Source of the DNA: Chamaelirium japonicum
Taxonomy: Eukaryota; Streptophyta; Magnoliopsida; Liliales; Melanthiaceae
Assembly: GCA_947650365.1 (NCBI GenBank)
Contig: CANTAL010000191.1
Coordinates: 434,001 to 498,000 of the forward strand
Direction: 5' to 3'
Length of the DNA stretch: 64,000 bases
In this document: positions 4,201 to 31,728 of the stretch, piece by piece
How positions within the stretch are numbered: position 1 is the stretch's first letter
Layout: each line of letters starts with the position of its first letter
The notes under the pieces: model-generated
Databases searched by the model: none
The model's input: the letters and a program-made list of their open reading frames with translations, nothing else
Told to the model about the DNA's origin: nothing
Translations under genes and position numbers: made by a program

Positions 4201-5022
4201 AATTAGAATGGATCGTACGAATAAATTAGAATGGATCCATTCGTGCGAATGAATTAGAATGGATTGTGCGAATAAATTAGACTGGATCGTGCGAATGACT
4301 AAGAATGGATCATACGAATGAATTAGAATGGATCGTACGAATGGATTAGAATGGATAGTACGAATGGATTAGAATGGAACGTACGAATGGATTAGAATGG
4401 ATCATACAAATGAATTAGAAAGGTTACATTCGTGAGAATTAATTAGAATAGATCGTACGAATGAATTAGAATGGATACATTCGAGTGAATGAATTAGAAT
4501 GGATCGTACGAATGAATTAGAATGGATCATAGGAATGAATTAGAATGGATCGTGCAAATGAATTAGAATGGATACATTCGTGCGAATGAATTAGAATGGA
4601 TCATAGGAATGAATTAGAATGGATCGTACGAATGAGTTAGAATGGTTACATTCGTGCGAATGAATTAGAATGGATCATAGGAATGAATTAGAACGGATCT
4701 TGCGAAAGAATTAGAATGGATCGTAAGAATGAATTAGAATGGATCGTACGAATGAATTAGAATGGATCATACGAATGAATTAGAATGGATCGTACGAATG
4801 GATTAGAATGGATCGTACGAATGAATTAGAATTAGATCATACGAATGAATTGGAATGGATCGTGCGAATGAATTAGAATGGATTGTACGATTAGAATGGA
4901 TACATTCGTACGAATGAATTAGAACGGATCGTGCGAATGAATTAGAATGAATCGTACGAATGAATTTGAATGGATTGTACGAATGAATTAGAATGGATCG
5001 TACGAATGAATTAGAATGGAAT
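1211..5022 (+). repeat. F block 2 (3.8 kb)
   Basis: Third longest uniform block. Holds repeated GTAGG cassettes (near 1580, 3140, 3335, 4550), several AGAAAGGTTACAT cassettes, CCACCGAATGAG near 2792, and an in-block monomer deletion near 3478-3500 (GGAGATTAG). Ends at an unusual GGAATTAGAATTCATTCG joint. Confidence 0.9.
3143..3440 (+). repeat. 194-bp higher-order unit in tandem
   Basis: The order GTGCAAATG, ATACATTCGTGC, GTAGG, GGACCGTACG, TTACATTCGTGC is read twice. The rare GGACCG variant is at 3211 and 3405, exactly 194 bp apart, which equals six 23-mers plus two 28-mers. The shared private variant marks a local duplication. Confidence 0.87.
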
Positions 5023-6848
5023 TAGAATTCATTCGTACGATCCATTCTAATCCATTCTAATCCATTCCAATTCATATGCACAAAGGTATCCATTCTAATT
5101 CATTCGTACGATCCATTCTAATTCATTCGTACGATCCATTCTAATTCATTCATACGATCCATTCTAATTAATTCGCACGATCCGTTCTAATTCATTCCTA
5201 TGATCCATTCTAATTCATTCGCACGAATGTAACCATTCTAATTCATTCGTACGATCCATTCTAATTCTTTCCGACGATCCATTCTAATTCATTCGCACTA
5301 ATGTGTCCATTCTAATTCATTTCCACGATCCATTCTAATTCATTCCTATGATCCATTCTAATTCATTCGTACGAACCATTCTAATTCATTCGCTCGAATG
5401 TATCCATTCTAATTCATTCGTACAATCCATTCTAATTCATTCGTACGATCCATTCTAATTCAGTCTCACGAATGTAACCTTTCTAATTCATTTGTATGAT
5501 CCATTCTAATTCATTCGTACGATCCATTCTAATCCATTCGTACGATCCATTCTAATCCATTCGTACGATCCATTCTATTTCATTCGTACGATCTATTCTA
5601 ATTCATTCGCTCGAATGTATCCATTCTAATTCATTCGTATGATCCATTCTAATCCATTCGTACGATCCATTCTAAACCATTCGTACGATCCATTCTAATT
5701 CATTCACACGAATGTAACCATTTTAATTCATTCATACGATCCATTCTAATTCATTCGCACAATCCATTCTAATTCATTTGTACGATCCATTCTAATCCAT
5801 TCGTACGATCCATTCTAATTTATTCGTACGATCCATTTTAATTCATTCTCACAAATGTAACCTTTCTAATTCATTTGTACGATCCATTCTAATTCATTCG
5901 TACGATCCATTCTAATCCATTCGTACGATCCATTCTAATCCATTCATACGATCCATTCTACTTCATTCGCACGAATGTAACCATTTTAATTCATTCGTAT
6001 GATCCATTCTAATTAATTCCTACGATCCATTCTAATTCATTCGCACGAATGTATCCATTCTAATTCATTTGCACGATCCATTCTAATTTATTCCTATGAT
6101 CCATTCTAATTCATTTGTACAATCCATTCTATTTCATTCGCTCGAATATATGCATTCTAATTCATTCGTATGATCCATTCTAATTCGTTCATACGATCCA
6201 TTCTAATTCGTTCGTACAATCCATTCTAATTCATTCGTACGATCCATTCTAATTCATTCGCACGATCCATTCTAATTCATTCCTATGATCCATTCTAACT
6301 CATTTGTACGATACATTCTAATTCATTCGCTCGAATGTATCCATTCTAATTCATTCGTACGATCCATTCTAATTCGTTCATACGATCCATTCTAATTCGT
6401 TCGTACGATCCATTCTAATTCATTCGTACGATCCATTCTAATTCCGTACGATCCATTCTAATTCATTCGCACGATCCATTCTAATTCATTCGCACAAATG
6501 TATCCATTCTAATTCATTTGTAAGATCCATTCTAATTCATTCGCACAAATGTATCCAATCTAATTCATTCGTTCGATCCATTCTAATTCATTCACATAAA
6601 TATATCCATTCTAATTCATTCAAACGATCCATTCTAATTCATTCGCACGATCCATTCTAATTCATTCGCACAAATGTATCCATTCTAATTCATTCGTACA
6701 ATCCATTTTAATTCATTCGCATGATCCATTCTAATTCATTCGTACGATCCATTATAATGCATTTGTACGATCCATTCTTATTCATTCGCACGAATGTATC
6801 CATTCTAATTTATTCGTACGATCCATTCTAATTCATTCTCACAAATGT
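5023..6848 (-). repeat. R block 2
   Basis: R monomers with CCTATG/CCTACG and CTCGAATG variants, and two runs of CATTCGTACGATCC-CATTCGTACGATCC (near 5530 and 5910). Starts with two shortened monomers (CCATTCTAATCC repeated) and closes at the junction AATGTATCATACGAATG. Confidence 0.9.
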
Positions 6849-7570
6849 ATCATACGAATGAATTAGAATGGATTGTACAAATGGATTAGAATGGATCGTA
6901 CGAATGAATTAGAATGGATCGTACGAATGCATTAGAATGGATACATTCGTGCAAATGAATTAGAATGGATCGTAAGAATGAATTAGAATGGATCGTGCGA
7001 ATGAATTAGAATGGATCGTACGAATGAATTAGAATGGATCGTACGAATGAATTATAATGGATACATTTGTGCGAATGAATTAGAATGGATCGTACGAATG
7101 AATTAGAATGTATCGTGCGAATGAATTAGAGTGTATCGTACGAATGAATTAGAATGGATACATTCGTGCGAATGAATTAGAATGGATCGTACGAATGAAT
7201 TAGACTGGATCGTACGAATAAATTAGAATGGATACATTCATGCAAATGAATTAGAATGGATCGTACGAATGAATTAGAATGGATCATACGAATGAATTAG
7301 AAAGGATCGTACGAATGAATTAGGATGGATCAAATAAATGAATTGGAATGGTTACATTCATACGAATGAATTAGAATGGATCGTGCGAATGGATTAGAAT
7401 GGATCGTACGAATGGATTAGAACGCATTGTACGAATGAATTCGAATAGATACATTTGTGCGAATGAATTAGATTGCATCGTACGAATGAATTTGAATGGA
7501 TTGTACGAATGAATTAGAATGGATCGTACGAATGAATTTGAATGGATCGTTCAAATGAATTAGAATGGAT
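6849..7570 (+). repeat. F block 3
   Basis: F monomers, mostly 23-mers with six or so 28-mers. Contains GGATTAGAACGCATTGTACG near 7410. Ends at GGATTCAAACAATGCATTC. Confidence 0.9.
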
Positions 7571-8349
7571 TCAAACAATGCATTCTAATTCATTCGTATG
7601 AGCTATTCTAATTTATTCGTACGATCCATTCTAATGAATTAGTACGATTCATTCTAATTCATTCGCATAAATATATCCATTCTAATTCATTCGTACGATC
7701 CATTCTAATTCATTCGCACGATCCATTCTAATTCATTCGCACAAATGTATCCATTCTAATTCATTCGTACGATCCATTCTTATTCATTCATACGATCACT
7801 TCTAATTCATTTGCATGATCCATTCTAATTCATTCCTATGATCCATTCTAATTCATTCGTACGATCCATTCTAATTCATTCGCTCGAATGTATCCATTCT
7901 AATTCATTCATACGATCCATTCTAATTCATTCGTACGATCCATTCTAATTCATTCTCACGAATGTAACCTTTCTAATTCATTTGTATGATCCATTCTAAT
8001 TCATTCTCACAAATGTATCCATTCTAATCCATTCGTACGATCCATTCTAATTCATTCTCACAAATGTATCCTTTCTAATCCATTCGTACGATCCATTCGT
8101 ACGATCCATTCTAATTCATTCTCACGAATGTAACCTTTCTAATTCATTCGTATGATCCATTCTAATTCATTCTCACAAATGTATCCATTCGTACGATCCA
8201 TTCTAATCCATTCGTACAATCCATTCTAATTCATTCGTACGATCCATTCTAATTCATTCGCTCGAATGTATCCATTCTAATTCATTCGTACGATCCATTC
8301 TAATTCGTTCATACGATCCATTCTAATTTGTTTGTACGATCCATTCTAA
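7571..8349 (-). repeat. R block 3
   Basis: R monomers with three closely spaced CTCACAAATG/CTCACGAATG cassettes (about 7960-8180). Two monomers near 8090 and 8190 have lost their TCTAATTCAT part (CCATTCGTACGATCC). Confidence 0.9.
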
Positions 8350-9488
8350 AATGAGTTAGAATGGATCATACGAATGAATTAGAATGGATCGTACGAATGA
8401 ATTAGAATGGATTGTGCGAATGAATTAGAATGGATCGTATGAATGAATAAGAATGGATCGTACGAATGAGTTAGAATGGATAGTACAAATGAATTAGAAA
8501 GGTTATATTTGTGAGAATGAATTAGAATGGATCGTACGAATGGATTAGAATGGATCGTACGAATGGATTAGAATGGATCGTACGAATGGATTAGAATGGA
8601 TCGTACGAATGAATTAGAATGGATCGTGCGAACGAATTAGAATGGATCGTGCGAACGAATTAGAATGGATCGTATGAACGAATTAGAATGGATCGTACGA
8701 ACAAATTAGAATGGATCGTACGAACGAATTAGCATGGATACATTCGAGCGAATGAATTATAATGGATCATACGAATGAATTAGAATGGATAATCGGAATG
8801 AATTAGAATGGATCGTGCAAATGAATTAGAGTGGATACATTCGTGCGAATGAATTAGAATGGATCGTAGGAATGAATTAGAATGGATCGTACGAATGAAT
8901 TAGAATGGTTACATTCGTGCGAATGAATTAGAATGGATCGTACGAATGGATTAGAATAGATCGTACGAATGGATTAGAATGGATCGTACAAATGAATTAG
9001 AATGGATCGTACAAATGAATTAGAAAGGTTACATTTGTGAGAATGAATTAGAATGGATCGTACAAATGAATTAGAATGGATCGTACGAATGGATTAGAAT
9101 GGATCGTACAAATGGATTAGAATGGATCGAACGAATGGATTAGAATGGATCGTACGAATGAATTAGAATGGATCATACAAATGAATTAGAAAGGTTACAT
9201 TCGTGAGACTGAATTAGAATGGATCGTGCGAATGAATTAGAATGGATCATGCGAATGAATTTAAATGGATCGTACGAATGAATTAGAATGGATCGAACGA
9301 ATGAATTAGAATGGATACATTCAAGCGAATGAATTAGAATAGATCGTAGGAATGGATTAGAATGGATCATACGAATGAATTAGAATGGATCGTGCGAATG
9401 AATTAGAATGGATTGTACGAATGAATTAGAATGGATAATTCGTGCGAATGAATTAGAATGGATCGGACGAATGAATTAGAATGGATGT
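8350..9488 (+). repeat. F block 4
   Basis: Includes three consecutive CGAACGAATTAG (CG-gained) monomers near 8630-8730, a GTAGG cassette (about 8816-8920) and the open-frame cassette at 9173-9370. Ends at GGATGTACGATTC. Confidence 0.9.
9173..9370 (-). repeat. Open-frame cassette, copy 1
   Basis: A roughly 200-bp variant order, read on the minus strand: TATGATCC, CCTACGATCTATTC, CTTGAATGTATCC, GTTCGATCC, CATTTAAATTCATTCGC, CTCACGAATGTAACC. Its frame is open for 65 codons only because 23- and 28-mers alternate and one TCTAATTC is replaced by an A-rich form, removing a TAA. It is a repeat signature, not a gene. Confidence 0.82.
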
Positions 9489-11168
9489 ACGATTCATTCT
9501 AATTCATTCCTACGATCCATTCTAATGCATTCGTACGATTCATTCTAATTCATTCGCACGATCCATTCTAATTCATTCAGACGATCCATTCTAATTCATT
9601 CACACGATCCATTCTAATTCATTCGTACGAATGTAACCATTCTAATTCATTCTTACGATCCATTCTTATTCATTCCTACGATCCATTCTAATTCATTCGC
9701 ACGAATGTATCCATTCTAATTCATTAGCACGATCCATTCTAATTCATTCCTATGGTCCATTCTATATCATTCGTACGATCCAGTCTAATTCATTCGCTCG
9801 AATGTATCCATTCTAATTCATTCATTAGATCCATTCTAATTCGTTCATACGATCCATTCTAATTCATTTGTACGATCCATTCTAATTCGTTCGTACGATC
9901 CATTCTAATTCATTCGCACGATCCATTCTAATTCATTCGCACGATCCGTTCTAATTCATTCACATGAATGTAACCTTTCTAATTCATTTGTATGATCCAT
10001 TCTAATTCATTTGTACGATCCATTCTAATCCATTCGTACGATCCATTCTAATTCATTTGCACTATCCTTTCTAATTCATTATTATGATCCATTCTAATTC
10101 ATTCGTACGATCCATTCTAATTTATTCGCTCGAATGTATCCATTCTAATTCATTCGTACGATCCATTCTAATTCATTCGTACGATCCATTCTAATTCATT
10201 CTCACGAATGTAACCATTCTAATTCATTTGTATGCATCCATTCTAATTCATTCGTACGATCCATTCTAATTCATTCGCACAATCCATTCTAATTCATTCG
10301 TACGATCCATTCTAATTAATTCGCATGATCCATTCTAATTCATTCGTACGATCCATTCTAATTCATTCGCACGAATGTATCCATTCTAATGCATTCGTAC
10401 GATTCAATCTAATTCATTCGCACGATCCATTCTAATTCATTCGTACGATCCATTCTAATTCATTCGGCCGATCCATTCTAATTCATTCGCACGAATGTAT
10501 CCATTCTAATTCATTCGTACAATCCATTCTAATTCAATCGCACAATCCATTCTAATTTATTCGTATGATCCATTCTAATTCATTCCTACGATCTATTCTA
10601 ATTCATTCGCTCGAATGTATCCATTTTAATTCATTCGTTCGATCCATTCTAATTCATTTGTACGATCCATTCTAATTCATTCGTATGATCCATTCTCTAA
10701 TTCATTCGTATGATCTATTCTAATTCATTCCTACGATCTATTCTAATTCATTCGCTCGAATGTATCCATTCTCATTCATTCGTTCGATCCATTCTAATTC
10801 ATTCGTACGATCCATTCTAATTCATTCGTACGAACCATTCTAATGCATTCGTACGATTCATTCTAATTCATTCGCACGATCCATTCTAATTCATTCGTAC
10901 GATCCATTCTTATTCATTCATACGATCCAATCTAATATTTTCGCATAATCCATTCTAATTCATTCGCACAAATGTACTCCATTCTAATTCATTCGTACAA
11001 TCCATTCTAATTCATTTGCACGATCCATTCTAATTCATTCCTATGATCCATTCTAATTCATTCGTACGATCCATTCTAATTTATTCGCTCGAATGTATCC
11101 ATTCTAATTCTTTCATATGATCCATTCTAATTCATTCGCACGAATGTATCCATTCTAGTTCATTCGCA
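9489..11168 (-). repeat. R block 4
   Basis: R array with CCTACG/CCTATG cassettes (9640-9760) and two tandem CCTACGATCTATTC-CTCGAATG units (about 10580-10640 and 10730-10790). A CT insertion (CATTCTCTAATTC) sits near 10690. Confidence 0.9.
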
Positions 11169-11326
11169 CGAATAAATTAGAATAGATCGAACGAATAAAT
11201 TAGAATGGTTAATGAATTAGAATGGATCGTACGAATGGATTAGAATGGATCGTACGAATGAATTAGAATGGATCGTGCGAATGAATTAGAACGGATCGTA
11301 CGAATGAATTAGAACGGATCATACGA
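11169..11326 (+). repeat. F block 5 (short)
   Basis: About seven F monomers, two with the AGAACGG variant. The first two (AATAGATCGAACG, GGTTAATG) are degenerate. Ends at GATCATACGATGAAATC. Confidence 0.85.
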
Positions 11327-12033
11327 TGAAATCTAATTCATTAGTACAATGCGTTCTAATCCATTCGTACGATCCATTATAATTCATTCGTATGATCCAT
11401 TCTAATTCATTTGTACGATCCATTCTAATTCTTTCGTACGATCAATTCTAATTCATTCATACGATCCATTCTAATTCATTCGCACGAATGTAACCATTCT
11501 AATTCATTCCGACGATCCATTCTAATTCATTCGCATGAATGTATCCATTCTAATTCATTTGCACGATCCATTCTAATTCATTCCTATGATCCATTCTAAT
11601 TCATTCGTACGATCCATTCTAATTCATTCGCACGAATGTATCCATTCTAATTCATTTGCACGATCCATTCTAATTCATTCCTATGATCCATTCTAATTCA
11701 TTCGTACGATCCATTCTAATTCATTCGCTCAAATGTATCCATTCTAATTCATTCGTACAATCCATTCTAATTCATTCGTACGATCCATTCTAATTCATTC
11801 GCACAAATGTATCCATTCAAATTCATTCGTACGATCCATTCTAATTCATTCGTACGATCCATTCTAATTCATTCGAACAAATGTATCCATTCTAATTCAT
11901 TCGTTCGATCTATTCTAATTCATTCGCATAAATATTTCCATTCTAATCCATTCGCACGATCCATTCTAATTCATTCGTATGATCAATTCGAATTCATTCG
12001 TACAATCCATTCTAATTCAGTCGTATGAATGTA
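11327..12033 (-). repeat. R block 5
   Basis: Starts with ACAATGCGTTCTAATCC and contains a 97-bp tandem unit (TTTGCACGATCC at 11559 and 11656; 97 = 3x23+28). Ends in CAGTCGTATGAATGTATC, a junction repeated at 13.25 kb. Confidence 0.9.
11807..12028 (+). repeat. Chance 73-codon open stretch in R block 5
   Basis: Open frame through mixed 23- and 28-mers, with two monomers that have lost TAA (TCAAATTC, TCGAATTC). It reads as short imperfect peptide periods and has no independent start context. Not a gene. Confidence 0.8.
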
Positions 12034-12062
12034 TCATACGAATGAATTAGAATGGATCATAG
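11979..12062. repeat. R-to-F junction unit, copy 1 (repeats 1221 bp on)
   Basis: The order ATGATCAATTC, CGTACAATCC, CAGTCGTATGAATG, TATCATACGAATG recurs at 13200-13283 with constant 1221-bp spacing, inversion joint included. Confidence 0.87.
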
Positions 12063-13106
12063 GAATGAATTAGAATGGATCGTGCAAATAAATTAGAATG
12101 GATACATTCGTGCGAATGAATTAGATTGGATCGTAGGAATGAATTAGAATGGATCGTACGAATGAATTAGAATGGTTACATTCGTGCGAATGAATTAGAA
12201 TGGATCGTATGAACGGATTAGAATGGATCGTACGAATAGATTAGAATGGATCGTACGAATCAATTAGAATAGATCGTTCAAATGAATTAGAAAGGTTACA
12301 TTTGTGAGAATGAATTAGAATGGATCGTACGAATAGATTAGAATGGATCGTACGAATGGATTAGAATGGATCGTACGAATGGATTAGAATGGATCATACA
12401 AATGAATTAGAAAGGTTACATTCGTGAGAATGAATTAGAATGGATCGTATGAATGAATTAGAATGGATCGTACGAATGAATTTGAATGGATACATTCGAG
12501 CGAATGAACTAGAATGGATCGTACGAATGAATTAGAATGAATCATAGGAATGAATTAGAATGGATCGTGCAAATGAATTAGAATAGATACATTCGTGCGA
12601 ATGAATTAGAATGGATCGTAGGAATGAATTAGAATGGATCGTACGAATGAATTAGAATGGTTACATTCGAGCGAATGAATTAGAATGGATCGTACGAATG
12701 GATTAGAATGGATCGTGCGAATGAATTAGAATGGATCGTACGAATGAATTAGAATGGATACATTCGAGCGAATGAATTAGAATAGATCGTAGGAGTAAAT
12801 TAGAATGGATCATACGAATGAATTAGAATGGATCGTGCGAATGAATTAGAATGGATTGTACGAATGAATTAGAATGGATCGAACAAATAAATTAGAATGG
12901 ATACATTTGTACGAATAAATTAGAATTGATTGTACGAATGAATTAGAATGGATACATTCTTGCGAATAAATTAGAATCGATCGTATATTCGTGCAAATAA
13001 ATTAGAATGGATCATACGAATGAATTAGAATGGGTCGTCCGAATGAATTAGAAAGAATCGTACGAATGCATTAGAATGGATCGTACGAATGAATTAGAAT
13101 GAATCG
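12034..13106 (+). repeat. F block 6
   Basis: F array with GTAGG cassettes (about 12080 and 12570), two AGAAAGGTTACAT cassettes and the CGTATATTCGTGCAAATAA variant near 12983. Ends at GAATCGTATGATCC. Confidence 0.9.
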
Positions 13107-13254
13107 TATGATCCATTCTAATTCATTTGTACGATCCATTAAAATACATTCGCACGATCCATTCTAATTCATTCGTACGATCCATTCTAATTCATTCGTA
13201 TGATCAATTCTAATTCATTCGTACAATCCATTCTAATTCAGTCGTATGAATGTA
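13107..13254 (-). repeat. R block 6 (short)
   Basis: Six or seven R monomers. Its last 55 bp are the second copy of the 12.0-kb inversion junction. Confidence 0.87.
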
Positions 13255-13283
13255 TCATACGAATGAATTAGAATGGATCATGC
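13200..13283. repeat. R-to-F junction unit, copy 2
   Basis: Same variant order and joint (CAGTCGTATGAATG then TATCATACGAATG) as 11979-12062. Confidence 0.87.
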
Positions 13284-13686
13284 GAATGAATTAGAATGGA
13301 TCGTACGAAAGAATTAGAATGGATACATTCGAGCGAATAAATTAGAATGGATCGTACGAATGAATTATAATGGATCATAGGAATGAATTAGAATGGATCG
13401 TGCAAATGAATTAGAATGGATACACCGAATGAGTTAGAATGGATCGTACGAATGAATTAGAATGAGTGTACGAATGAACTATAATGGATATATTCGTGCG
13501 AATGAATTAGAATAGATCATATGAAAGAATTAGAATGGATCGTGCGAACGAATTAGAATGGATCGTTGGAATGAATTAGAATGGATCGTACGAACGAATT
13601 AGAATGGATCATACGAACGAATTAGAATGGATCATATGAACGAATTAGAATGGATCGTACGAATGAATTAGAATGGATACATTCGT
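13255..13686 (+). repeat. F block 7
   Basis: Contains the private variant GATCATATGAAAGAATTAG near 13508, shared with 34.8 kb, 43.04 kb and 44.62 kb. Ends at GGATACATTCGTACGATCC. Confidence 0.9.
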
Positions 13687-14088
13687 ACGATCCATTCTAA
13701 TTCATTCGTACGATCCATTCTTATTCATTTGTACGATCCATTCAAATTCATTCGCATGATCCATTCTAATTCATTCGTACGATCCATTCTAATTCATTCT
13801 CACGAATGTAACCTTTCTAATTCATTTGTATGATCCATTCTAATTCATTCGTACGATCCATTCTAATCCATTCGTACGATCCATTCTAATCCATTCGTAC
13901 GATCCATTCTAATCCATTCGTACAATCTATTCTAATTCATTCTCACAAATGTAACCTTTCTAATTCATTTGTACGATCCATTCTAATTCATTCGTACGAT
14001 CCATTCTGATTTATTCGTACGATCCATTCTAATTCATTCGTACGATCCATTCTAATTCATCGCACGAATCCGTTCTAATTCATTCGCA
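13687..14088 (-). repeat. R block 7
   Basis: R array ending in the rare order TCATCGCACGAATCCGTTC, then CATTCGCACGAATGAATTAG. The same end is found at 35.52-35.57 kb. Confidence 0.88.
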
Positions 14089-15025
14089 CGAATGAATTAG
14101 AATGGAAACATTCGTGCGAATGAATTAGAACGGATTCGTGCGATGAATTAAAATGGATTAGAATGGATACATTCATGCAAATGAATTAGAATGGATCGTG
14201 CGAATGAATTAGAATGGATCGTACGAATGAATTAGAATGAATCGTACGAATGAATTAGAATGGATACATTTGTGCGATGAATAAGAATGGAGCGTACGAA
14301 TGAATTAGAATGGAGCGTACGAATGAACTAGAATGGATACATTCGTGCGAATGAATTAGAATGGATTGCACGAATAAATTAGAATGGATACATTCATGCG
14401 AATGAATTAGAATGGATCGTACGAATGAATTAGAATGGATAGTGCGAATGAATTTGAATGAATTGTACGAATGAATTAAAATGGATCGTACGAATGAATT
14501 AGAATGGATCGTGCGAATGAATTAGAATGGATCGTATGAATAAATTAGAATGGATCGTACGAATGAATTAAAATGGATACATTTGTGCGAATTAGAATGG
14601 ATCGTACGAATGGATTAGAATTAGATCGTACGAATGAATTAGAATGGATCGTACGAATGAATTAGAATGAATCATCCGAATGCATTAGAATGGATCATAC
14701 GAATGGATTAGAATGGATCATATGAATGGATTAGAATGGATCGTACGAATGGATTAGAATGGATCGTACGAATGGATTAGAATGGATCGTACGAATGAAT
14801 TAGAATGGATACATTCGTGCGAATTAATTAGAATGGATCGTACGAATGAATTAGAATGGATCGTGCGAATGAATTAGAATGGATCGTATGAATAAATTAG
14901 AATGGATCGTACGAATGAATTAGAATGGATCGTACAAATGAATTAGAATGGATCATACGAATGAATTATAATGGATCGTACGAATGGATTAGAACGCATT
15001 GTACTAATGAATTAGATTTCATCGT
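14089..15025 (+). repeat. F block 8
   Basis: Begins with GAACGGATTCGTGCGATG (shared with 35.6 kb). Also carries two GGAGCGTACG monomers near 14288-14320 (shared with 34.72-34.76 kb) and a shortened ATTTGTGCGAATTAG unit near 14582 (shared with 18.67 and 20.42 kb). Ends at TTCATCGTATGATCC. Confidence 0.9.
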
Positions 15026-15256
15026 ATGATCCATTCTAATTCATTCGTACGATCCATTCTAATTCATTCGCACAAATGTATCCATTCTAATTCATTCGCA
15101 CAAATGTATCCATTCTAATTCATTCGTACGATCCGTTCTAATTCATTCGCACGATCCATTCTAATTCATTCGTACGATCCATTCTAATCCATTCGTACGA
15201 TCCATTCTAATTCATTAACCATTCTAATTTATTCGTTCGATCTATCCTAATTCATT
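15026..15256 (-). repeat. R block 8
   Basis: About ten R monomers, the last ones degenerate (CATTAACCATTC, CTATCCTAATTC). Confidence 0.88.
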
Positions 15257-15890
15257 TGTGCGAATGAACTAGAATGGATACATTCGTGCGAATAAATTAG
15301 AATGGATCATATGAAAGAATTAGAATGGATACATTCGAGCGAATAAATTAGAATGGATCGTACGAATGAATTAGAATGGGGTACATTTGTGCGAATAAAT
15401 TAGAATGGATTATGCGAATGAATTAGAATGGATCGTATGAATGAATAAGAATGGATCGTACGAATGAATTAGAATGGATCGTGCGAATGAATTAGAATGA
15501 ATCGTACGAATGCATTAGAATGGTTCGTACGAATGAATTAGAATGGATCGTACGAATGAATTAGAATGGATACATTTGTACGAATGAATTAGAATGGATC
15601 GTACGAATGAATTAGAATGGATCGTACGAATGAATTAGAATGGATAGTGCGAATGAATTAGAATGGATCGTACGATCATAGAATGGATCGTATATTCGTG
15701 CAAATAAATTAGAATGGATTGTACGAATGAATTAGAATGGATCCACCGAATGAGTTAGAATGGATCATACGAATGAATTAGAATGGATCCACCGAATGAG
15801 TTAGAATGGATCATACGAATGAATTAGAATGGTTACATTCGTGCGAATGAATTAGAATAGATCGTACGAATGAATTAGAATGGATCGTAG
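15257..15890 (+). repeat. F block 9 (left arm of large palindrome)
   Basis: Contains GTACGATCATAGAATGG (15671), CGTATATTCGTGCAAATAA and two CCACCGAATGAG monomers (15743, 15789). Each is mirrored in R block 9. Confidence 0.9.
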
Positions 15891-16242
15891 GAATGAATCC
15901 ATTCTAATTTATTCGTACGATCCATTCTAATTCATTCGTACGATCCATTCTAATTCATTCGTATGATCCATTCTAACTCATTCGGTGGATCTATTCTAAT
16001 TCATTCGTATGATCCATTCTAACTCATTCGGTGGATCCATTCTAATTCATTCGTACGATCCATTCCAATTTATTTGCACGAATATACGATCCATTCTATG
16101 ATCGTACGATCCATTCTAATTCATTCGCACTATCCATTCTAATTCATTCGTACAATCCATTCTAATTCATTCGTACGATCCATTCTAATTCATTCGTACA
16201 AATGTATCCATTCTAATTCATTCGTACGATCCATTCTAATTC
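15535..16242. repeat. About 700-bp quasi-palindrome
   Basis: Paired private variants: TACATTTGTA 15571-15580 with TACAAATGTA 16197-16206; CATAGAATGG 15677-15686 with CCATTCTATG 16091-16100; CCACC 15743 and 15789 with GGTGG ending 16034 and 15988. Each pair sums to 31777, so the outer arms align without net indel. Inside, a 28-mer on the left (GTTACATTCGTGC, about 15832) faces a 23-mer, shifting the axis to about 15891. The loop is about ten bases (15886-15896). Confidence 0.92.
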
Positions 16243-16322
16243 ATTCATATGATCTATTCTAATTCATTCGCACGAATGTATCCATTCTAATTCATTTGCA
16301 CGATCCATTCTAATTCAATCGT
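15891..16322 (-). repeat. R block 9 (right arm of large palindrome)
   Basis: Holds ACTCATTCGGTGGATC twice (about 15976 and 16022), TTGCACGAATATACG and CTATGATCGTACG in mirror order to block F9. Beyond 16242 it becomes ordinary R array. Confidence 0.9.
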
Positions 16323-16769
16323 ACGAATGATATAGAATGGATCGTAGGAATGAAGTAGAATGGATCGTACGAATGAATTAGAATGGATTGTGCGAATGAA
16401 TTAGAATCGATCTTACGAATGATTTAGAATGGATCGTACGAATGAATTAGAATGGATCGTACGAATGAATTAAAATGGATACATTCATACGAATGAATTA
16501 GAATGGATCGTGCGAATGAATTAGAGTGGATCGTACGAATGAATTAGAATGGATCGTACGAATGAATTAGAATGGATCGTACGAATGAATTAGAATGGAT
16601 ACCTTTGTGCATATGAATTAGAATGGATCGTACGAATGAATTAGAATGAATCATACGAATGCATTAGAATGGATCATACGAATGGATTAGAATGGATCGT
16701 ACGAATGGATTAGAATGGATCGTACCAATGCATTAGAATGGATCGTACGAATGAATTAGAATGAATCGT
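16323..16769 (+). repeat. F block 10
   Basis: Starts degenerate (GATATAGAATGG, GAAGTAGAATGG). Ends with ATGCATTAG, then GAATGAATTAG, then GAATCGTACGATCC, the recurrent F-to-R junction. Confidence 0.9.
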
Positions 16770-16910
16770 ACGATCCATTCTAATTCATTCGTACGATCTA
16801 ATTTATTCGTATGATCCATTCTAATTCATTCGCACGAATGTAACCATTCTAATTCATTCGTACGATCCATTCTAATTCATTCCTACGATCCATTCTAATT
16901 CATTCGTACG
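16770..16910 (-). repeat. R block 10 (short)
   Basis: Six R monomers, one shortened to CGTACGATCTAATTTATTC. Ends at CGTACGATTGACTTAG. Confidence 0.88.
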
Positions 16911-18480
16911 ATTGACTTAGAATGGATAGTGCGAATGAATTAAAATGAATTAGAATGGATCATGCGAATGAATTAAAATGGATCGTACGAATGAATTAGA
17001 ATGGATACATTCGAGCGAATGAATTAGAATGGATCGTACGAATGAATTAGAATGGATTGTGCGAATGAATTAGAATGAATCGTACGAATGCATTAGAATG
17101 GATCGTATGAACGAATTAGAATGGATCGTACGAATGAATTAGAATGGATACATTCGAGCGAATGAATTAGAATGGATCGTACGAATGAATTAGAATGGAT
17201 CGTGCGAATGAATTAGAATGGATCGTACGAATGAATTAGAATGGATCGTGCGAATGAATTAGAATCGATCGTACGAATGAATTAGAATGGATCGTACGAA
17301 TGAATTAGAATGGATCGTACGATGGAATTAGAATAGATCGTGCGAATAAATTAGAATGGATCGTACGAATGAATTAGAATGGATACATTCGTACGAATGG
17401 ATTAGAATGGATCGTACGAATGAATTAGAATGGGTCGTACGAATAAATTAGAATAGCTCGTACGAATAAATTAGAAGGGATCGTACGAATGAATTAGAAT
17501 GGATCATACGAATGCATTAGAATGGATACATTCGTGCGAATGAATTAGAATGGATCGTACGAATGAATTAGAATAGATCGTACGAATGAATTAGAATGGA
17601 TCGTACGAACGAATTAGAATGGATCGTACGAATGAATTAGAATGGATACATTCGAGCAAATGAATTAGAATGGATCGTACTAATGAATTAGAATGGATCA
17701 TAGGAATGAATTAGAATGGATCGTGCAAATGAATTAGAATGGATACATTCGTGTGAATGAATTAGAATGGATCGTAGGAATGAATTAGAATGGATCGTAC
17801 GAATGAATTAGAATGGATCGTACGAATGGATTAGAATGGATCATATGAATGAATTAGAATGCATCGTACGAATGAATTAGAATGGTTACATTTGTGCGAA
17901 TGAATTAGAATGGATCGTACGAATGGATTAGAATGGATCGTACGAATGGATTAGAATGGATCGTACGAATGAATTAGAATGGATCGTACAAATGAATTAG
18001 AAAGGTTACATTTGTGAGAATGAATTAGAATGGATCGTACGAATGAGTTAGAATGGATCGTACGAATGGATTAGAATGGATTGTACGAATGTATTAGAAT
18101 GGATCGTACGAATGAATTAGAATGGATCGTATGAACGAATTAGAATGGATCGTACGAATGAATTAGAATGGATACATTCGAGCGAATGAATTAAAATGGA
18201 TCGTACGAATGAATTAGAATGGATCATTGGAATGAATTAGAATGGATCATATGAATGAATTAGAATGGTTACATTCGTGCGAATGAATTAGAATGGATCG
18301 TACGAATGGATTAGAATGGATCGTACGAATGGATTAGAACGCATTGTACGAATGAATTAGAATAGATATATTTGTGCGAATGAATTAGATTTCATCGTAC
18401 GAATGAATTAGAAGGGATCGTACGAACGAATTAGAATGGATCGTATGAACGAATTAGAATGGATCGTACGAATGGATTAG

Positions 18481-19130
18481 AATGGATCGTACAAATGAAT
18501 TAGAAAGGTTACATTTGTGAGAATGAATTAGAATGGATCGTACGAATGAATTAGAAAGAATCTTACGAATGGATTAGAATGGATCGTACGAATGGATTAG
18601 AATGGATCGTGCAAAAGAATTAGAATGGATCGTATGAATAAATTAGAATGGATCTTACGAATGAATTAAAATGGATACATTTGTGGGAATTAGAATGGGT
18701 CGTACGAATGGATTAGAATTAGATCGTACGAATGAATTAGAATGGATCGTACGAATGAATTAGAATGAATCATACGAATGCATTAGAATGGATCGTACGA
18801 ATGGATTAGAATGGATCGTACGAATGAATTAGAATGGATCATACGAATTAATTAGAAAGGTTATATTCGTGAGAATGAATTAGAATGGATCGTAAGATTG
18901 AATTAGAATGGATCATGCGAATGAATTTGAATAGATCGTACGAATGAATAAGAATGGATCGTACGAATGAATTAGAAAGGATACATTCGAGCGAATGAAT
19001 TAGAATAGATCGTAGGAATGAATTAGAATGGATCATATGAATGAATTAGAATGGATCGTGCGAATGAATAAGAATGGATTGTACAAATGAATTAGAATGG
19101 ATACATTCGTGCGAATGAATTAGAATGGAT
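18481..19130 (+). repeat. 1.74-kb higher-order unit, copy 1
   Basis: Shares with 20221-20916 the order ACAAATGAATTAGAAAGG, AATCTTACG or GATCTTACG, ATTTGTGGGAATTAG, GGATTAGAATTAGATCG, AATCATACGAATGCATTAG, CGAATTAATTAGAAAGG, AAGATTGAATTAG, AATTTGAAT. Confidence 0.87.
18848..19036 (-). repeat. Open-frame cassette, copy 2
   Basis: Same variant order as 9173-9370, with a 62-codon open stretch. It lies inside the 1.74-kb unit. Confidence 0.82.
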
Positions 19131-20220
19131 CGTACGAATGAATTAGAATGGATCGTACGAATGGATTAGAATGGATCGTACGAATGGATTTGAATGGATC
19201 GTACGAATGAATTAGAATGGATCGTACGAATGGATTAGAATGGACCGTACGAATGAATTAGAATGGATTATGCGAATGAATTTGAATGGATCGTATGAAT
19301 GAATTAGAATGGATCGAATGAATGAATTAGATGTGATACATTCAAGCGAATGAATTAGAATAGATCGTAGGAATGAATTAGAATTGATCATACGAATGAA
19401 TTAGAATGTATCGTGCGAATGAATTAAAATAGATTGTACGAATGAATTAGAATAGATACATTCGTGTGAATGAATTAGAATGAATCGTACGAATGAATTA
19501 GAATGGATCGTACGAATGAATTAGAATGGTTACATTCGTGCAAATGAATTAGAATGGATCGTACGAATGGATTAGAATGGATCATACGAATGAATTAGAA
19601 TGGATCATAGGAATGAATTAGAATGGATCGTGCGAATGAATTAGAATGGTTACATTCGTGCGAATGAATTAGAATGGATTGTACTAATGGATTAGAATGG
19701 ATCGTACAAATGGATTAGAATGGATCGCACGAATGAATTAGAATGGATCGTACAAATGAATTAGAAAGGTTACATTTGTGAGAATGAATTAGAATGGATC
19801 GTACGAATGGATTAGAATGGATCGTACGAATGGATTAGAATGGATTGTAGGAATGAATTAGAATGGATCATACGAATGAATTAGAATGGATCGTACGAAT
19901 GAATTAGAATGAATCATACGATTGAATTTGAATGGATCGTACGAATGAATTAGAATGGATACATTTGTGCGAATTAATAAGAATGGATCGTGCAAATGAA
20001 TTAGAATGGATACATTCGTGCGAATCAATTAGAATGGATTGTGCGAATGAATTAGAACGGATTGTGCGAATGAATTAGAACGCATTGTACGAATGAATTA
20101 GAATGGATCGTACGAATGAATAGAATGGATCGTATGAATAAATTAGAATGGATCGTGCGAATGAATTAGAATGGATCGTATGAATGAATTAGAATGGATA
20201 CATTCGAGCGAATAAATTAG

Positions 20221-20916
20221 AATGGATCGTACAAATGAATTAGAAAGGTTACATTTGTGAGAATGAATTAGAATGGATTGTACGAATGAATTAGAATGGA
20301 TCTTACGTATGGATTAGAATGGATCGTACGAATAGATTAGAATGGATCGTGCAAATAAATTAGAATGGATCGTATGAATAAATTAGAATGGATCGTACGA
20401 ATGAATTAAAATGGATACATTTGTGCGAATTAGAATGGGTCGAACGAATGGATTAGAATTAGATCGTACGAATGAATAAGAATGGATCGTACGAATGAAT
20501 TAGAATGAATCATACGAATGCATTAGAATGGATCGTACGAATGGATTAGAATGGATCGTACGAATGGATTAGAATGGATCGTATGAATGGATTAGAATGG
20601 ATCGTACGAATGAATTAGAATGGATCATACAAATTAATTAGAAAGGTTACATTCGTGAGAATGAATTAGAATGGATCGTACGATTGAATTAGAATGGATC
20701 ATGCAAATGAATTTGAATGGATCGTACGAATGAATAAGAATGGATAGTACGAATGAATTAGAATGGATACATTCGAGCGAATGAATTAGAATAGATCGTA
20801 GGAATGAATTAGAATGGATCATACGAATGAATTAGAATGGATCGTGCGAATGAATTAGAATGGATTGTACGAATGAATTAGAATGGATACATTCGTGCGA
20901 ATGAATTAGAATGGAT
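20221..20916 (+). repeat. 1.74-kb higher-order unit, copy 2
   Basis: Aligns to 18481-19130 at 1740-bp offset, changing to 1786 bp after two extra GGATT-type 23-mers (46 bp) near 20545-20600. Length change by whole monomers is the expected product of unequal exchange. Confidence 0.87.
20634..20822 (-). repeat. Open-frame cassette, copy 3
   Basis: Exactly 1786 bp from copy 2 and the same 62-codon length, so the two were duplicated together. Confidence 0.82.
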
Positions 20917-22558
20917 CGTACAAATGAATTAGAATGGATCGTACGAATGGATTAGAATGGATCGTACAAATGAATTAGAAAGGTTATATTTGTGAGAATG
21001 AATTAGAATGGATCGTACGAATGAATTATAATGGATCATAGGAATGAATTAGAATGGATCGTGCAAATGAATTAGAATGGATACATTCGTGCGAATGAAT
21101 TAGAATGGATCGTAGGAATGAATTAGAATGGATCGTACAAATGAATTAGAATGGTTACATTCGTGCGAATGAATTAGAATGGATCGTACGAATGAATTAG
21201 AATGGATCGTGCGAATGAATTAGAATGGATCGTATGGATAAATTAGAATGGATCGTACGAATGAATTAAAATGGTTACATTCGTGCGAATGAACTAGAAT
21301 GGATTGTATGAATGAATTACAATGGATGGTACGAATGAATTAGAATGGTTACATTCGTGCAAATGAATTAGAATGGATCGTACGAATGAATTAGAATTGA
21401 TCATGCGAATGAATTAGAATGGATCGCACGAATCGATTAGAATGGATCGTACGAATGAATTAGAATGCATTGTACGAATGAATTAGATTGGATCGTACGA
21501 ATGGATTAGAATGGATCGTACGAATGAATTAGAATGGATCGTACGAATGAATTAGATTGGATACATTCGAGCGAAATAATTAGAATGGATCGTACGAATT
21601 AATTAGAATGGATCATAGGAATGAATAAGAATGGATCGTGCAAATGAATTAGAATGGATACATTCGTGCGAATGAATTAGAATGGATCGTAGGAATGAAT
21701 TAGAATGGTTACATTCATGCGAATGAATTAGAATGGATCGTACGAATGGATTAGAATCGATCGTACGAATGGATTAGAATGGATCGTACGAATGAATTAG
21801 AATGGATCGTACAAATGAATTAGAAAGATTACATTTGTGAGAATGAATTAGAATGGATCGTATGAATGAATTTGAATGGATCGTATGAATGGATTAGAAT
21901 GGATCGTACGGATGCATTAGAATGGATACATTCGTGCGAATGAATTAGAATGGATCGTACGAATGGATTAGAATGGATCTTCCGAATGGATTAGAATGGA
22001 TCGTACGAATGAATTAGAATGGATCGTACAAATGAATTAGAAAGGTTACATTTGTGAGAATGAATTTGAATGGATCGTACGAATGAATTAGAATAGTTCG
22101 TACGATTGGATTAGAATGGATCGTACGAATGGATTAGAATGGATCATACGAATGGATTAGAATAGATCGTACGAATGAATTAGAATGGATCATACAAATG
22201 AATTAGAAAGGTTACATTCGTGAGAATGAATTAGAATGGATCGTACGAAAGAATTAGAATGGATACATTTGTGCGAATGAATTAGAATTGATCGTATATT
22301 CGTGCAAATAAATTAGAATGGATCGTACGAATGAGTTAGAATGGATCCACCGAATGAGTTAGAATGGATCATACGAATGAATTAGAATGGATCGTATGAA
22401 TGAATTAGAATGGATTGTGCGAATGAATTAGAATAGATCGTATGAATGAATAAGAATGGATCGTGCGAATGAATTAGAATGGATCGTACGAATGAATTAG
22501 ATTGGATCGTGCGAATGAATTAGAAACATTCGTGCGAATGAATTAGAATGAATTAGAT

Positions 22559-22630
22559 TGCATCGTTGGATCCATTCTAATCCATTCGTACGATCCATTC
22601 TAATTCATTTCCACAATCCATTCTAATTCA
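22559..22630 (-). repeat. R block 11 (about 70 bp)
   Basis: Three R monomers only, between GCATCGTTGGATCC and CTAATTCATTAGAATGG. A small inversion in otherwise F array. Confidence 0.87.
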
Positions 22631-24047
22631 TTAGAATGGATCGTACGAATGAATTAGAATGGATACATTCGAGCGAATGAATTAGAATGGATCGTACGAA
22701 TGAATAAGAATGGATCATAGGAATGAATTAGAATGGATCGTGCAAATGAATTAGAATGGGTACATTCGTGCGAATGAATTCGAGTGGATCGTACGAATGG
22801 ATTAAAATGGATCGGACGAACGAATTAGAATGGATTCATTCGCACGAATGAATTAAAATGGATACATACAAATAAATTAGAAAGGTTACATTTGTGAGAA
22901 TGAATTAGAATGGATCGTACGAATGAATTAGAATGGATCGTACGAATGAATTAGAACGCATTGTACGAATGAATTAGAATGGATCGTACGAATGAATTAG
23001 AATGGATCGTACGAATGGATTAGAATGGATCGTACGAATGCATTAGAATGGATCATACGAATGAATTAGAATGGATCGTACGATTGAATTGGAATGGATC
23101 ATGCGAATAAATTTGAATGGATCGTACGAATGAATTAGAATGGATCGAACGAATGAATTAGAATGGATACATTCGAGCGAATGAATTAGAATAGATTGTA
23201 AGATTGAATTAGAATGGATCATACGAATGAATTAGAATGGATCGTGCGAATGAATTAGAATGGATCATATGAATGAATTAGAATGGATCGTACGAACGAA
23301 TTAGAATGGATCGTACGAATGGATTAGAATGGATCGTATGAATAAATAAGAATGGATCGTACGAATGAATTAGAATGGATCGTGCGAATGAATTAGAATG
23401 AATCGTACGAATGCATTAGAATGGATCGTACGAATGAATTAGAATGAATCGTACGAATGAATTAGAATGGATCGTACGAATGAATTAGAATGGATCGTAC
23501 GAATGGATTAGAATGGATCGTACGAATGGATTAGAATGGATCATACGAATGAATTAGAATGGATCACACAAATGAATTAGAAAGGTTACATTCGTGAGAA
23601 TGAATTAGAATGGATCGTGCGAATGAATTAGAATTGATCATACGAATGGATTAGAATGTGTCGTACGAATGAATTAGAATAGATTGTGCGAATGAATTAG
23701 AATGGATCGTACAAACGAATTAGAATGGATCGTACGAACGAATTAGAATGGATCGTATGAATGAATTAGAATGGATCGTACGAATGAATTAGAATGGATA
23801 CATTCGAGCGAATAAATTAGAATGGATCGTACGAATGAATTAGAATGGATCATAGGAATGAATTAGAATGGATCGTGCAAATGAATTAGAATGGATACAT
23901 TCGTGCGAATGAATTAGAATGGATCGTAGGAATGAATTAGAATGGATCGTACGAATGAATTAGAATGGTTACATTCGTGCGAATGAATTAGAATGGATCG
24001 TACGAATGAATTAGAATGGATCGTGCGAATGAATTAGAATGGATCGT
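22631..24047 (+). repeat. F block 12
   Basis: Contains a full GAGCG, CATAGG, GTGCAA, ATACATTCGTGC, GTAGG, TTACATTCGTGC cassette (23800-23985). Ends at GGATCGTACGATCC. Confidence 0.9.
23795..23990 (+). repeat. GTAGG cassette, representative F copy
   Basis: Best-preserved F example of the commonest short higher-order unit: 28-mer ending CGAGC, two 23-mers, GTGCAAATG, 28-mer ATACATTCGTGC, GTAGG, 23-mer, 28-mer TTACATTCGTGC. GAGCG to ATACATT spans 97 bp, and ATACATT to TTACATT 74 bp. Close copies begin near 4480, 8740, 17640, 21560, 24560, 42300 and 52920, with R copies near 11480, 25330, 27470, 28720, 30240, 38295, 50580 and 62120. Confidence 0.85.
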
Positions 24048-24429
24048 ACGATCCAATCTAATTCATTCGTCTGATCAATTCTAATTCATTCGCATGATCC
24101 ATTCTAATTCATTCGTACGATCCATTCTAATTCATTCGCACGAATGTAACCATTCTAATTCATTCGTACGATCCATTCTAATTCATTCCTACGATCTATT
24201 CTAATTCATTCGCACGAATCTATCCATTCTAATTCATTTGCACGATCCATTCTAATTCATTCCTATGATCCATTCTAATTCATTCGTACGATCCATTCTA
24301 ATTCATTCGCTCGAATGTATCCATTCTAATTCATTCGTACGATTCATTCTAATTCATTCGCACGATCCATTCTAATTCATTCGTACGATCCATTCTTATT
24401 CATTCATACGATCCATTATAATTCATTTG
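24048..24429 (-). repeat. R block 12
   Basis: R copy of the GTAGG cassette (about 24140-24310). Ends CTTATTCATTCATACG then CATTTGTACGAATG, the same joint as at 26.05 kb. Confidence 0.9.
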
Positions 24430-25158
24430 TACGAATGAATTAGAATGGATCGTACGAATGGATTAGAATGGATCGTACGAATGAATTAGAATGGATCGTA
24501 CGAACGAATTAGAATGGATCGTATGAACGAATTAGAATGGATCTTACGAATGAATTAGAATGGATACATTCGAGCGAATGAATTAGAGTGGATCGTACGA
24601 ATGAATTAGAATGGATCATAGGAATGAATTAGAATGGATCGTGCAAATGAATTAGAATGGATACATTCGTGCGAATGAATTAGAATGGATCGTAGGAATG
24701 AATTAGAATGGATCGTACGAATGAATTAGAATGGTTACATTCGTGCGAATGAATTAGAATGGATCGCACGAATTGATTGGAATGGATCGTACGAATGAAT
24801 TAGAATGGATCGTACGAATGGATACATTCGTGCGAATGAATTAGAATGGATCGTACGAATGGATTAGAATGGATCTTACGAACGGATTAGAATGGATCGT
24901 ACGAATGAATTAGAATGGATCGTACAAATGAATTAGAAAGGTTACATTTGTGAGAATGAATTAGAATGGATTGTACAAATGGATTAGAATGGATCGTACG
25001 AATGGATTAGAATGGATCGTACGAATGGATTAGAATGGATCGTACGAATGGATTAGAATGGATCGTATGAATGAATTAGAATGGATCGTGTGAATGAATT
25101 AGAATGAATCGTACGAATGCATTAGAATGGATCATACAGATGAATTAGAATGGATCGT
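24430..25158 (+). repeat. F block 13
   Basis: Another full GTAGG cassette (24555-24750), then three GGATT monomers. Ends at GGATCGTACGATCC. Confidence 0.9.
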
Positions 25159-26056
25159 ACGATCCATTCTAATTTATTCGTCCGATCCATTCTAATTCAT
25201 TCGCAAGAATGTGTTTATTCTAATTCATTCGCACGATCCATTCTAATTCATTCCTACGATCCATTCTAATTCATTCGTACGATCCATTCTAATTCATCCG
25301 ATCCATTCTAATTCATTCCTATGATCCATTCTAATTCATTCGCACGAATGTAACCATTCTAATTCATTCATACGATCCATTCTAATTCATTCCTACGATC
25401 CATTCTAATTCATTCGCACGAATGTATCCATTCTAAATCATTTGCACGATCCATTCTAATTCATTCCTATGATCCATTCTAATTCATTCATACGATCCAT
25501 TCTAATTCATTCTCACGAATGTAACCTTTCTAATTCATTCGTATGATCCATTCTAATTCATTCGTACGATCCATTCTAATCCATTCGTACGATCCATTCT
25601 AATTCATTCTCTCGAATGTATCCATTCTAATTCATTCGTACGATCCATTCTAATTCGTTCATACGATCCATTCTAATTCATTCCTACGATCCATTCTAAT
25701 TCATTCGCACGAATGTATCCATTCTAATTCATTTGCACGATCCATTCTAATTCATTCCTATGATCCATTCTAATTCATTCGTACGATCCATTTTAATTCA
25801 TTCGCACAAATGTTTCCATTTTAATTCATTCGTACGATCCATTCTAATTCATTCGCACGATCCATTCTAATTCATTCGCACGAACATATCCGTTCTAATT
25901 CATTTGCACGATCCATTCTAATTCATTTCATTCCTATGATCCATTCTAATTCATTCGTACGATCCATTCTAATTCATTCGCTCGAATGTATCCATTCTAA
26001 TTCATTCGTACGATCCATTCTTATTCATTCATACGATCCATTCTAATTCATTTGTA
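25159..26056 (-). repeat. R block 13
   Basis: Opens with CGTCCGATCC (shared with 26.73, 37.27, 51.81, 61.08 and 63.58 kb). Two GTAGG-type R cassettes, one with a 5-bp slip (CATTTCATTCC near 25925). Confidence 0.9.
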
Positions 26057-26715
26057 CGAATGAATTACAATGGATCGTACAAATGAATTAGAATGGATCG
26101 TGCGAATGAATTAGAATGGATCGTACGAACGAATTAGAATGGATCGTACGAACGAATTAGAATGGATCGTATGAACGAATTAGAATGGATCGTGCGAATG
26201 AATTAGAATAGATATATTCATACGTATGAATTAGAATGGATAGTGCGAATGAATTAGAATGGATCGTATGAATGAATTAGAATGGATTGTACGAATGAAT
26301 TAGAATGGATCGTATGAATGAATAAGAATGGATCGTACGAATGAATAAGAATGGATCGTACGAATGGATTAGAATGGATCGTACGAATGGATTAGAATGG
26401 ATCGTACGAATGGATTAGAATGGATCGTGAGAATGAATTAGAATGGATCGTACGAATGAATTAGAATGGATACATTCGTGAGAATGAATTAGAATGGATC
26501 GTACGAATGAATTAGAATGGATCATGCGAATGAATTTGAATTGATCGTACAAATGAATAAGAATGGATCGTACGAATGAATTAGAATGGATACATTCGAG
26601 CGAATGAAATAGAATAGATCGTAGGAATGAATTAGAATGGATCATATGAATGAATTAGAATGAATCGTACGAATGCATTAGAATGGATCGTACGAATGAA
26701 TTAGAATGAATCGTA
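26057..26715 (+). repeat. F block 14
   Basis: Three GGATT monomers in a row (26355-26425), then the open-frame cassette. Ends with ATGCATTAG and GAATCGTACGATCC. Confidence 0.9.
26415..26645 (-). repeat. Open-frame cassette, copy 4
   Basis: A 76-codon version, extended because the flanking AGAAAGG 28-mer is replaced by GGATACATTCGTGAG and stays in frame. Confidence 0.82.
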
Positions 26716-27909: not shown

Positions 27910-28046
27910 AAATGAATTAGAATGGATACATTCGAGCGAATGAATTAGAATAGATCGTAGTAATGAATTAGAATGGATCATACGAATGAATTAGAATGGA
28001 TCGTGCGAATGAATTAGAATAGATTGTACGAATAAATTAGAATGGA
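27910..28046 (+). repeat. F block 15 (short)
   Basis: Six F monomers beginning GAGCG, AATAGATCGTAG. Ends at GGATCCATTC, a switch that deletes the CGTACG joint. Confidence 0.87.
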
Positions 28047-28428
28047 TCCATTCTAATTCATTTGTATGATCCATTCTAATGCATTCGTACGATTCATTCA
28101 AATTCATTCGCACGATCCATTCTAATTCATTCGTACGATCCATTCTAATCCATTCGTACGATCCATTCTAATTCATTCGTACGATCCATTCTAATTGATT
28201 CTCACAAATGTAACCTTTCTAATTCATTTGTACGATCCATTCTAGTTCATTCGTACGATCCATTCTAATCCATTCGTACGATCCATTCTAATCCATTCGT
28301 ACGACCCATTCTAATTCATTCGCACGAATGTATCCATTCTAATTCATTCGTGCAATCCATTCTAATTCATTCGTATGATCCATTCTAATTCATTCCTACG
28401 ATCGCACGATCCATTCTAATTCATTCGT

Positions 28429-28626
28429 ATGATCCATTCTAATTTATTCCTACGATCTATTCTAATTCATTCTCTCAATTGTATCCATTCTAATTCATTC
28501 GTTCGATCCATTCTAATTCATTCGTACGATCCATACAAATTCATTCGCATGATCCATTCTAATTCATTCGTACGATCCATTCTAATTCATTCTCACAAAT
28601 GTAACCTTTCTAATTCATTTGTATGA
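28429..28626 (+). repeat. Open-frame cassette, copy 5
   Basis: 65-codon open stretch with CATACAAATTCATTCGC in place of the usual TCAAATTC. Same variant order as 9173-9370, seen here on the plus strand. Confidence 0.82.
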
Positions 28627-31698: not shown

Positions 31699-31728
31699 TC
31701 ATTTGTACGATTGATTCAAATTCATTCG

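What the first reader, a model, noticed from the sequence alone, without database searches (positions are those of the whole stretch)
15535..16242. Large quasi-palindrome of about 700 bp with a ten-base loop
Rare variants (CCACCGAATGAG twice, CGTATATTCGTGC, GATCATAGAATGG, TACATTTGTA) are mirrored at coordinates that all sum to 31777. The only length difference is one 28-mer facing a 23-mer, which moves the axis by 2.5 bp. Two generic opposed arrays would not share private variants in mirror order, so one arm was copied from the other by fold-back or break-induced template switching.
Basis: partly seen in the sequence, partly recalled or inferred. Interest (0 to 1): 0.75.

Follow-up and report, generated by a model that had tools for sequence, protein, structure and literature searches.

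The report
Mirror-image copy inside satellite DNA
A 700-base mirror-image stretch really exists in this satellite DNA, but it is one of many short copied blocks, in both orientations, in an array whose repeat units keep changing direction.

Summary
Observation confirmed. Arms 15535-15885 and 15897-16242 share 339 identities with 7 mismatches and 5 gap bases; score 641 against a maximum of 559 in 1,500 random opposed pairs. The loop is 11 bases, not ten. The named variants mirror about 31777, but only GATCATAGAATGG is confined to the arms.

Context changes the reading. The whole 64 kb is one 23-bp satellite that switches strand 64 times. A rare-variant scan leaves 41 duplicated block pairs, 17 direct and 24 inverted; three shuffled arrays gave none at the scan threshold. 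The finding is the second-best inverted block. Its supported tract is 302 bp (15531-15832 with 15945-16246, 4 substitutions). The inner ~50 bp per side look like ordinary opposed units, so the short loop may only reflect satellite register; this evidence is moderate (scan p=0.11). A second palindrome at 46.4 kb has a right arm closer to a third locus than to its own left arm.

Best reading: homology-primed copying across a pre-existing strand switch. Fold-back at the axis remains possible. New member of a known kind; species unknown.

The parts
1..64000 (.). 23-bp satellite array, F unit GGATCGTACGAATGAATTAGAAT with a recurrent 28-bp variant; 33 F and 32 R runs, 64 strand switches
   Evidence: Tandem Repeats Finder, run segmentation, unit profile
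   Evidence: 339 identities, 7 mismatches, 5 gap bases against the right arm
15897..16242 (-). right arm of the quasi-palindrome (R units)
15531..15832 (+). left copy of the 302-bp tract that shared rare variants support
   Evidence: 60.3 nats, 4 substitutions, no gap
15945..16246 (-). right copy of the 302-bp tract
15833..15944 (.). 112-bp inner spacer: 53 bp of F units, 11-base loop, 48 bp of R units; no closer than ordinary opposed units but able to fold as a hairpin
   Evidence: inner score -14.6 to -17.9 nats, P=0.18 against random pairs; fold -43.3 kcal/mol, 200 shuffles mean -10.8
15886..15896 (.). 11-base loop at the F-to-R strand switch; the junction string GTAGGAATGAATCCATTC occurs once in the window
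14917..15569 (.). inverted copy of 10789-11431 that carries two strand switches and stops where the informative part of the left arm begins
   Evidence: 98.1% identity over aligned bases, 11 substitutions, gaps of 69 and 79
46073..46387 (.). left arm of a second quasi-palindrome (comparison case)
   Evidence: 9 substitutions in 315 against 46518-46832
46518..46832 (.). right arm of the second quasi-palindrome; 46525-46832 is 1 substitution from the reverse complement of 47529-47836

Best explanation
The array is a 23-bp satellite whose units point both ways. Broken or stalled 3' ends pair with homologous units, whichever chromosomal direction those have, and copy a few hundred bases before returning. 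Where the partner lies across a nearby strand switch, the result is a quasi-palindrome. Here an F-to-R switch at 15886-15896 most likely existed first; units beside it paired across the switch, as a hairpin or with the sister array, and about 302 nt were copied between the two sides, followed by a few substitutions. Shown: common descent of the arms, the tract limits by rare variants, and other copied blocks in both orientations. Inferred: that the switch came first, priming by unit pairing, and the pathway. Direction of copying is open, with weak hints for left to right.
For: Rare variants support 15531-15832 / 15945-16246 only, while the inner segment and the outer 60 bp score negative. The window holds 24 inverted and 17 direct block pairs, an inverted share that unit orientation alone predicts (expected 49.8%, p=0.28); no block reached the threshold in three shuffled arrays. 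Inverted tract ends are not tied to strand switches (5 of 96 ends within 20 bp, p=0.33), and some tracts carry switches along. Near partners are favoured (inverted under 150 bp: 2 of 24, p=0.006; direct under 5 kb: 11 of 17, p=5e-6). The second palindrome also has an inner part below the copy model (-12.6 nats). The inner units can fold.
Against: Clustering of differences near the axis is p=0.11 when the boundary is free, and inner units are slightly closer than the random mean, so identity up to the axis is not excluded. The 41 pairs are not independent (several share a locus). Direct tract ends do lie near switches more than chance within 10 bp (6 of 68, p=0.004, at four switches), which hints that some copying and switching coincide. 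No second haplotype shows the state before the event.
Confidence: 0.5

Rival explanations
1. Fold-back or template switch at the axis: a 3' end in AT folded onto GGAT with an 11-nt loop, copied the left arm back to about 15531, then switched again into other R units. The inner differences arose later.
For: Arms are in register up to 15885/15897. Strand switches in the window show more F/R overlap than random joins: 50 of 64 with at least 6 bp; 25 of 37 merged classes, p=0.0005. Fold-back inverted duplications with short microhomology are known in yeast and human (passages of PMC7467729 and PMC3907307).
Against: The inner ~50 bp hold 3 of the 7 substitutions and the only indel. Any F/R switch in this satellite aligns in register with a loop of under one unit. 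This junction has little overlap (5 bp by the measure), and among F-to-R classes the overlap excess is not significant (8 of 14, p=0.18). Arms are strongly alike at only 4 of 64 switches.
Confidence: 0.28
2. One arm, or both, was copied from a third locus outside the window, so the arms are cousins rather than parent and copy.
For: This fits the second palindrome, whose right arm is 1 substitution from 47529-47836 and 9 from its left arm. Many inverted copies lie kilobases apart.
Against: Within the window no third copy comes close; the nearest, at 22.15-22.45 kb, aligns with 13 mismatches and 63 gap bases. Adjacency of the two copies needs an extra coincidence, and near partners are favoured.
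Confidence: 0.14
3. A chimeric hairpin read or assembly error.
For: Inverted chimeras are a known artefact of long reads (recalled), and no reads could be checked here.
Against: The arms differ by 7 substitutions, all transitions, and a 28-mer/23-mer exchange. Likeness ends on both outer sides inside the same runs. Similar inverted copies lie kilobases apart.
Confidence: 0.08

Closest known systems
Macro-dyad satellite arrays of Tribolium madens and relatives (PMC13081366, passages read)
   Same: Satellite arrays whose monomers change orientation and form palindrome-like order.
   Different: There the units are ~110-bp derived, arrays mostly have two subarrays, and inversion sites are highly conserved; here the unit is 23 bp, with 64 switches in 64 kb and 37 merged junction classes.
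Fold-back inverted duplications of yeast and human (PMC7467729 and PMC3907307, passages read)
   Same: Inverted copy next to its source with an unduplicated spacer.
   Different: Human spacers there are 766-70,466 bp; here 11 bp by register or 112 bp by rare variants. In yeast, loops under 15 nt are typical of mre11 or sae2 mutants, median 36 nt where both genes work. The copy here is ~300 bp inside a satellite, not a large terminal rearrangement.
Gene conversion in palindromic or reversed repeats (review PMC7463522, passages read)
   Same: Short-tract copying between homologous repeats, said there to be over-represented in palindromic and reversed repeats.
   Different: No species, chromosome position or recombination data are known for this window.

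Membership tests
Quasi-palindrome (long inverted repeat with short spacer) | Two inverted arms more alike than local background | tested here: met
   641 against a maximum of 559 in 1,500 random pairs; 60.3 nats against a shuffled maximum of 26.9
Quasi-palindrome (long inverted repeat with short spacer) | Homology reaching to a short loop | tested here: inconclusive
   In register to 15885/15897, but the inner ~50 bp score negative for recent copy; scan p=0.11
Fold-back inverted duplication | Inverted microhomology at the junction beyond chance | tested here: inconclusive
   This junction: 5 bp by the k-mer measure; class-wide excess in R-to-F (17 of 23, p=0.0004) but not F-to-R (8 of 14, p=0.18)
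Fold-back inverted duplication | Ancestral allele without the inverted arm | not testable with these tools
Gene conversion tract | Internal tract of near identity with both edges at background | tested here: met
   Tract 4 substitutions in 302; inner and outer neighbours score negative; the inner edge is only moderately supported
Macro-dyad satellite array | Satellite subarrays in opposite orientation | tested here: met
   65 alternating runs
Macro-dyad satellite array | Conserved inversion sites | tested here: not met
   64 switches fall into 37 classes, the largest with 13 members
Centromeric satellite | Location at a centromere or CENP-A binding | not testable with these tools
   Species and chromosome unknown; the genome search not answered in 15 tries

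The most novel reading that the evidence does not exclude
The array evolves by orientation-blind copying: units recombine with homologous units on either strand, so strand switches act as seeds on which local copying builds and renews palindromes. Quasi-palindromes would then be a steady by-product of a strand-mosaic satellite rather than rare fold-back accidents.
Probability: 0.4. Interest if true: 0.5.

Novelty: new member of a known kind. Interest (0 to 1): 0.33.

Why it matters
An array with frequent strand switches and traceable rare variants lets one measure how satellite blocks are copied, over what length and distance, and whether orientation matters. The palindrome alone is a local product of that process. 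If orientation-blind copying held over whole arrays, it would give a simple account of how long palindromes keep arising in satellites without selection for hairpins.

Tried and rejected
Source of the sequence: no match in plasmids or phages by blastn, none for exact unit patterns in viral contigs or genome contigs, and no paper held with the four unit strings searched. The tools note that records of the window's own genome may be left out. The host is unknown. A eukaryote is likely from 64 kb of satellite without evident genes (inference). CpG positions of the unit carry more C-to-T / G-to-A variants (7.6-15.3%) than the four other G positions (2.0-6.1%), which would fit cytosine methylation but proves nothing.

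Raw local-alignment scores (the printed list was cut) overstate kinship of near-consensus stretches. The 24.0 kb switches, high, were therefore not counted as a special palindrome: the stretch belongs to a ~300-bp family seen in both orientations at 23.7, 24.5, 27.4, 28.7 and 52.9 kb and at 24.07 kb.

The idea that every strand switch is a decayed palindrome was not supported: 60 of 64 switches do not stand out as the four best do. Central revision of a once perfect palindrome was considered less fitting, because it should leave unmatched sequence on one side only (reasoning, no call). The inner-segment background was anchored at inserted bases (P=0.44) and was replaced (P=0.18). A Fisher test of inner against outer differences (p=0.0036) uses a boundary chosen afterwards and counts a mismatch made by the split, so I rely on the scan test instead (p=0.11). 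One search gave 49 refined rows; 5 under 30 nats, 1 self-match and 2 nested rows were dropped, leaving 41. Refinement drifted for some blocks, so at least one direct block (12037-12449 with 52953-53365) is missing from the 41.

Full report
What is there. The whole window is one tandem array of a 23-bp unit, GGATCGTACGAATGAATTAGAAT on the F strand, with a recurrent 28-bp variant. It holds a single ORF of at least 100 aa (108 aa), no Rfam match at gathering score and no tRNA. Units change direction often: 65 runs, 33 F and 32 R, 64 switches, median run 666 bp, longest 6,362 bp (unassigned stretches and runs under 30 bp were left out before this count).

The observation. Arms 15535-15885 and 15897-16242 align with 339 identities, 7 mismatches and 5 gap bases. 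Random F and rc(R) pairs of that size reach at most 559 against 641 observed, n=1,500. At strand switches, arms of up to 350 bp beat all 400 random pairs at 15896, 24045 and 24421, and all but one at 46471; the next best switch is matched or beaten by 11 of 400. The named variants mirror about 31777, but only GATCATAGAATGG is confined to the two arms. The loop has 11 bases. Folded as single-stranded DNA the region is one hairpin.

How far the copy goes. To discount consensus satellite I scored shared bases by how rare they are at their unit position. Over all diagonals of the window this gave 24 direct and 30 inverted ungapped blocks of at least 32 nats, before removing redundancy. Three monomer-shuffled arrays with the same run structure gave none, maximum 26.9. 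The finding ranks second among inverted blocks, 60.3 nats, over 15531-15832 and 15945-16246, with 4 substitutions. The next 53 and 48 bases towards the axis score -14.6 to -17.9 depending on the divergence assumed, and the outer 60 bases also score negative. Counted in unit register, the inner segment has 3 substitutions and one indel; random opposed two-unit pairs average 6.5 events, and 18% of 5,000 have four or fewer. Clustering of the eight differences towards the axis is p=0.02 for that window, but 0.11 when the boundary is free. So the inner part may simply be ordinary satellite in register, and the effective spacer would be 112 bp. This is moderate evidence, not proof.

The setting. After refinement and removal of redundant rows, 41 pairs remain, 17 direct and 24 inverted, 90-1,603 bp long, 37 bp to 61 kb apart. 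They are not independent, since several share a locus. The largest is a direct duplication, 30089-31691 with 31729-33331, 3 substitutions in 1,603. The inverted share is what unit orientation alone predicts (expected 49.8%, p=0.28). Near partners are favoured in both classes: under 5 kb, 9 of 24 inverted (p=0.006) and 11 of 17 direct (p=5e-6). Inverted tract ends show no tie to strand switches (5 of 96 within 20 bp, p=0.33); direct ones show some within 10 bp (6 of 68, p=0.004), at four switches. Some inverted copies carry switches along, for example 10789-11431 with 14917-15569, which stops within the consensus stretch where the palindrome's left arm begins. Strand switches themselves show more F/R sequence overlap than random joins, 50 of 64 with at least 6 bp, and 25 of 37 when similar junctions are merged (p=0.0005); for F-to-R classes alone, 8 of 14, the excess is not significant (p=0.18). 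The finding's own junction is among those with little overlap, 5 bp.

A comparison inside the window. A second palindrome has arms 46073-46387 and 46518-46832. Its right arm (46525-46832) differs from 47529-47836 by 1 substitution in 308, and from its own left arm by 9 in 308. That pair is best explained by copying from a third place, so mirror order alone does not prove fold-back.

Direction. A partial relative of the arm lies in F orientation at 22.15-22.45 kb. It shares the left arm's AATAG variant near the axis, not the right arm's base, a weak hint that the left side is the source. Within the tract, the right arm holds the rarer base at 3 of the 4 differences, too few to decide.

Mechanism. 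I favour copying between opposed units across an already existing switch, either by extending a hairpin formed by the inner units (such a hairpin is predicted stable) or by gene conversion with the sister array. I rate this 0.5, fold-back at the axis 0.28, a third-locus origin 0.14 and artefact 0.08. In yeast, loops under 15 nt are typical of mre11 or sae2 mutants while strains with both genes show a median of 36 nt (passages of PMC7467729). Human fold-back junctions carry 2-8 bp microhomology in 13 of 21, with spacers of 766 bp or more (passages of PMC3907307). The spacer here is far below those human ones on either reading.

What is known. Strand-switching satellite arrays with palindrome-like order are described in Tribolium (passages of PMC13081366), and gene conversion in palindromic repeats is reviewed in PMC7463522 (passages). 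Beyond the exact-string search, eight keyword searches, seen as listings apart from the papers named here, showed no title on a 23-bp satellite of this kind; they were narrow and limited to the held library. PMC4022460 (passages) sets aside human satellite reads matching both strands as possible inversion breakpoints. I therefore call this a new member of a known kind.

Noticed in passing
30089-31691 and 31729-33331: Nearly perfect direct duplication of 1.6 kb, 3 substitutions in 1,603 bp, 37 bp apart: the youngest-looking large block in the window.
   Followed up: partly
43000-48400: Local complex of direct and inverted copies of the same blocks, several of which carry a strand switch inside.
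   Followed up: partly
28-bp variant, e.g. 15276-15303: The 28-mer replaces CGTA by ACATTCGTG and so holds CATTCG facing CGAATG, a tiny inverted repeat inside the unit, as if made by a local templated switch (read from the sequence).
   Followed up: no
12013-12037 and 13234-13258; 14080 and 35543; 13679 and 34854: Strand switches with the same junction sequence at separate places, so switches are copied along with blocks or recur.
   Followed up: partly
whole window: CpG positions of the unit carry more C-to-T and G-to-A variants (7.6-15.3%) than the other G positions (2.0-6.1%), as cytosine methylation would give.
   Followed up: no
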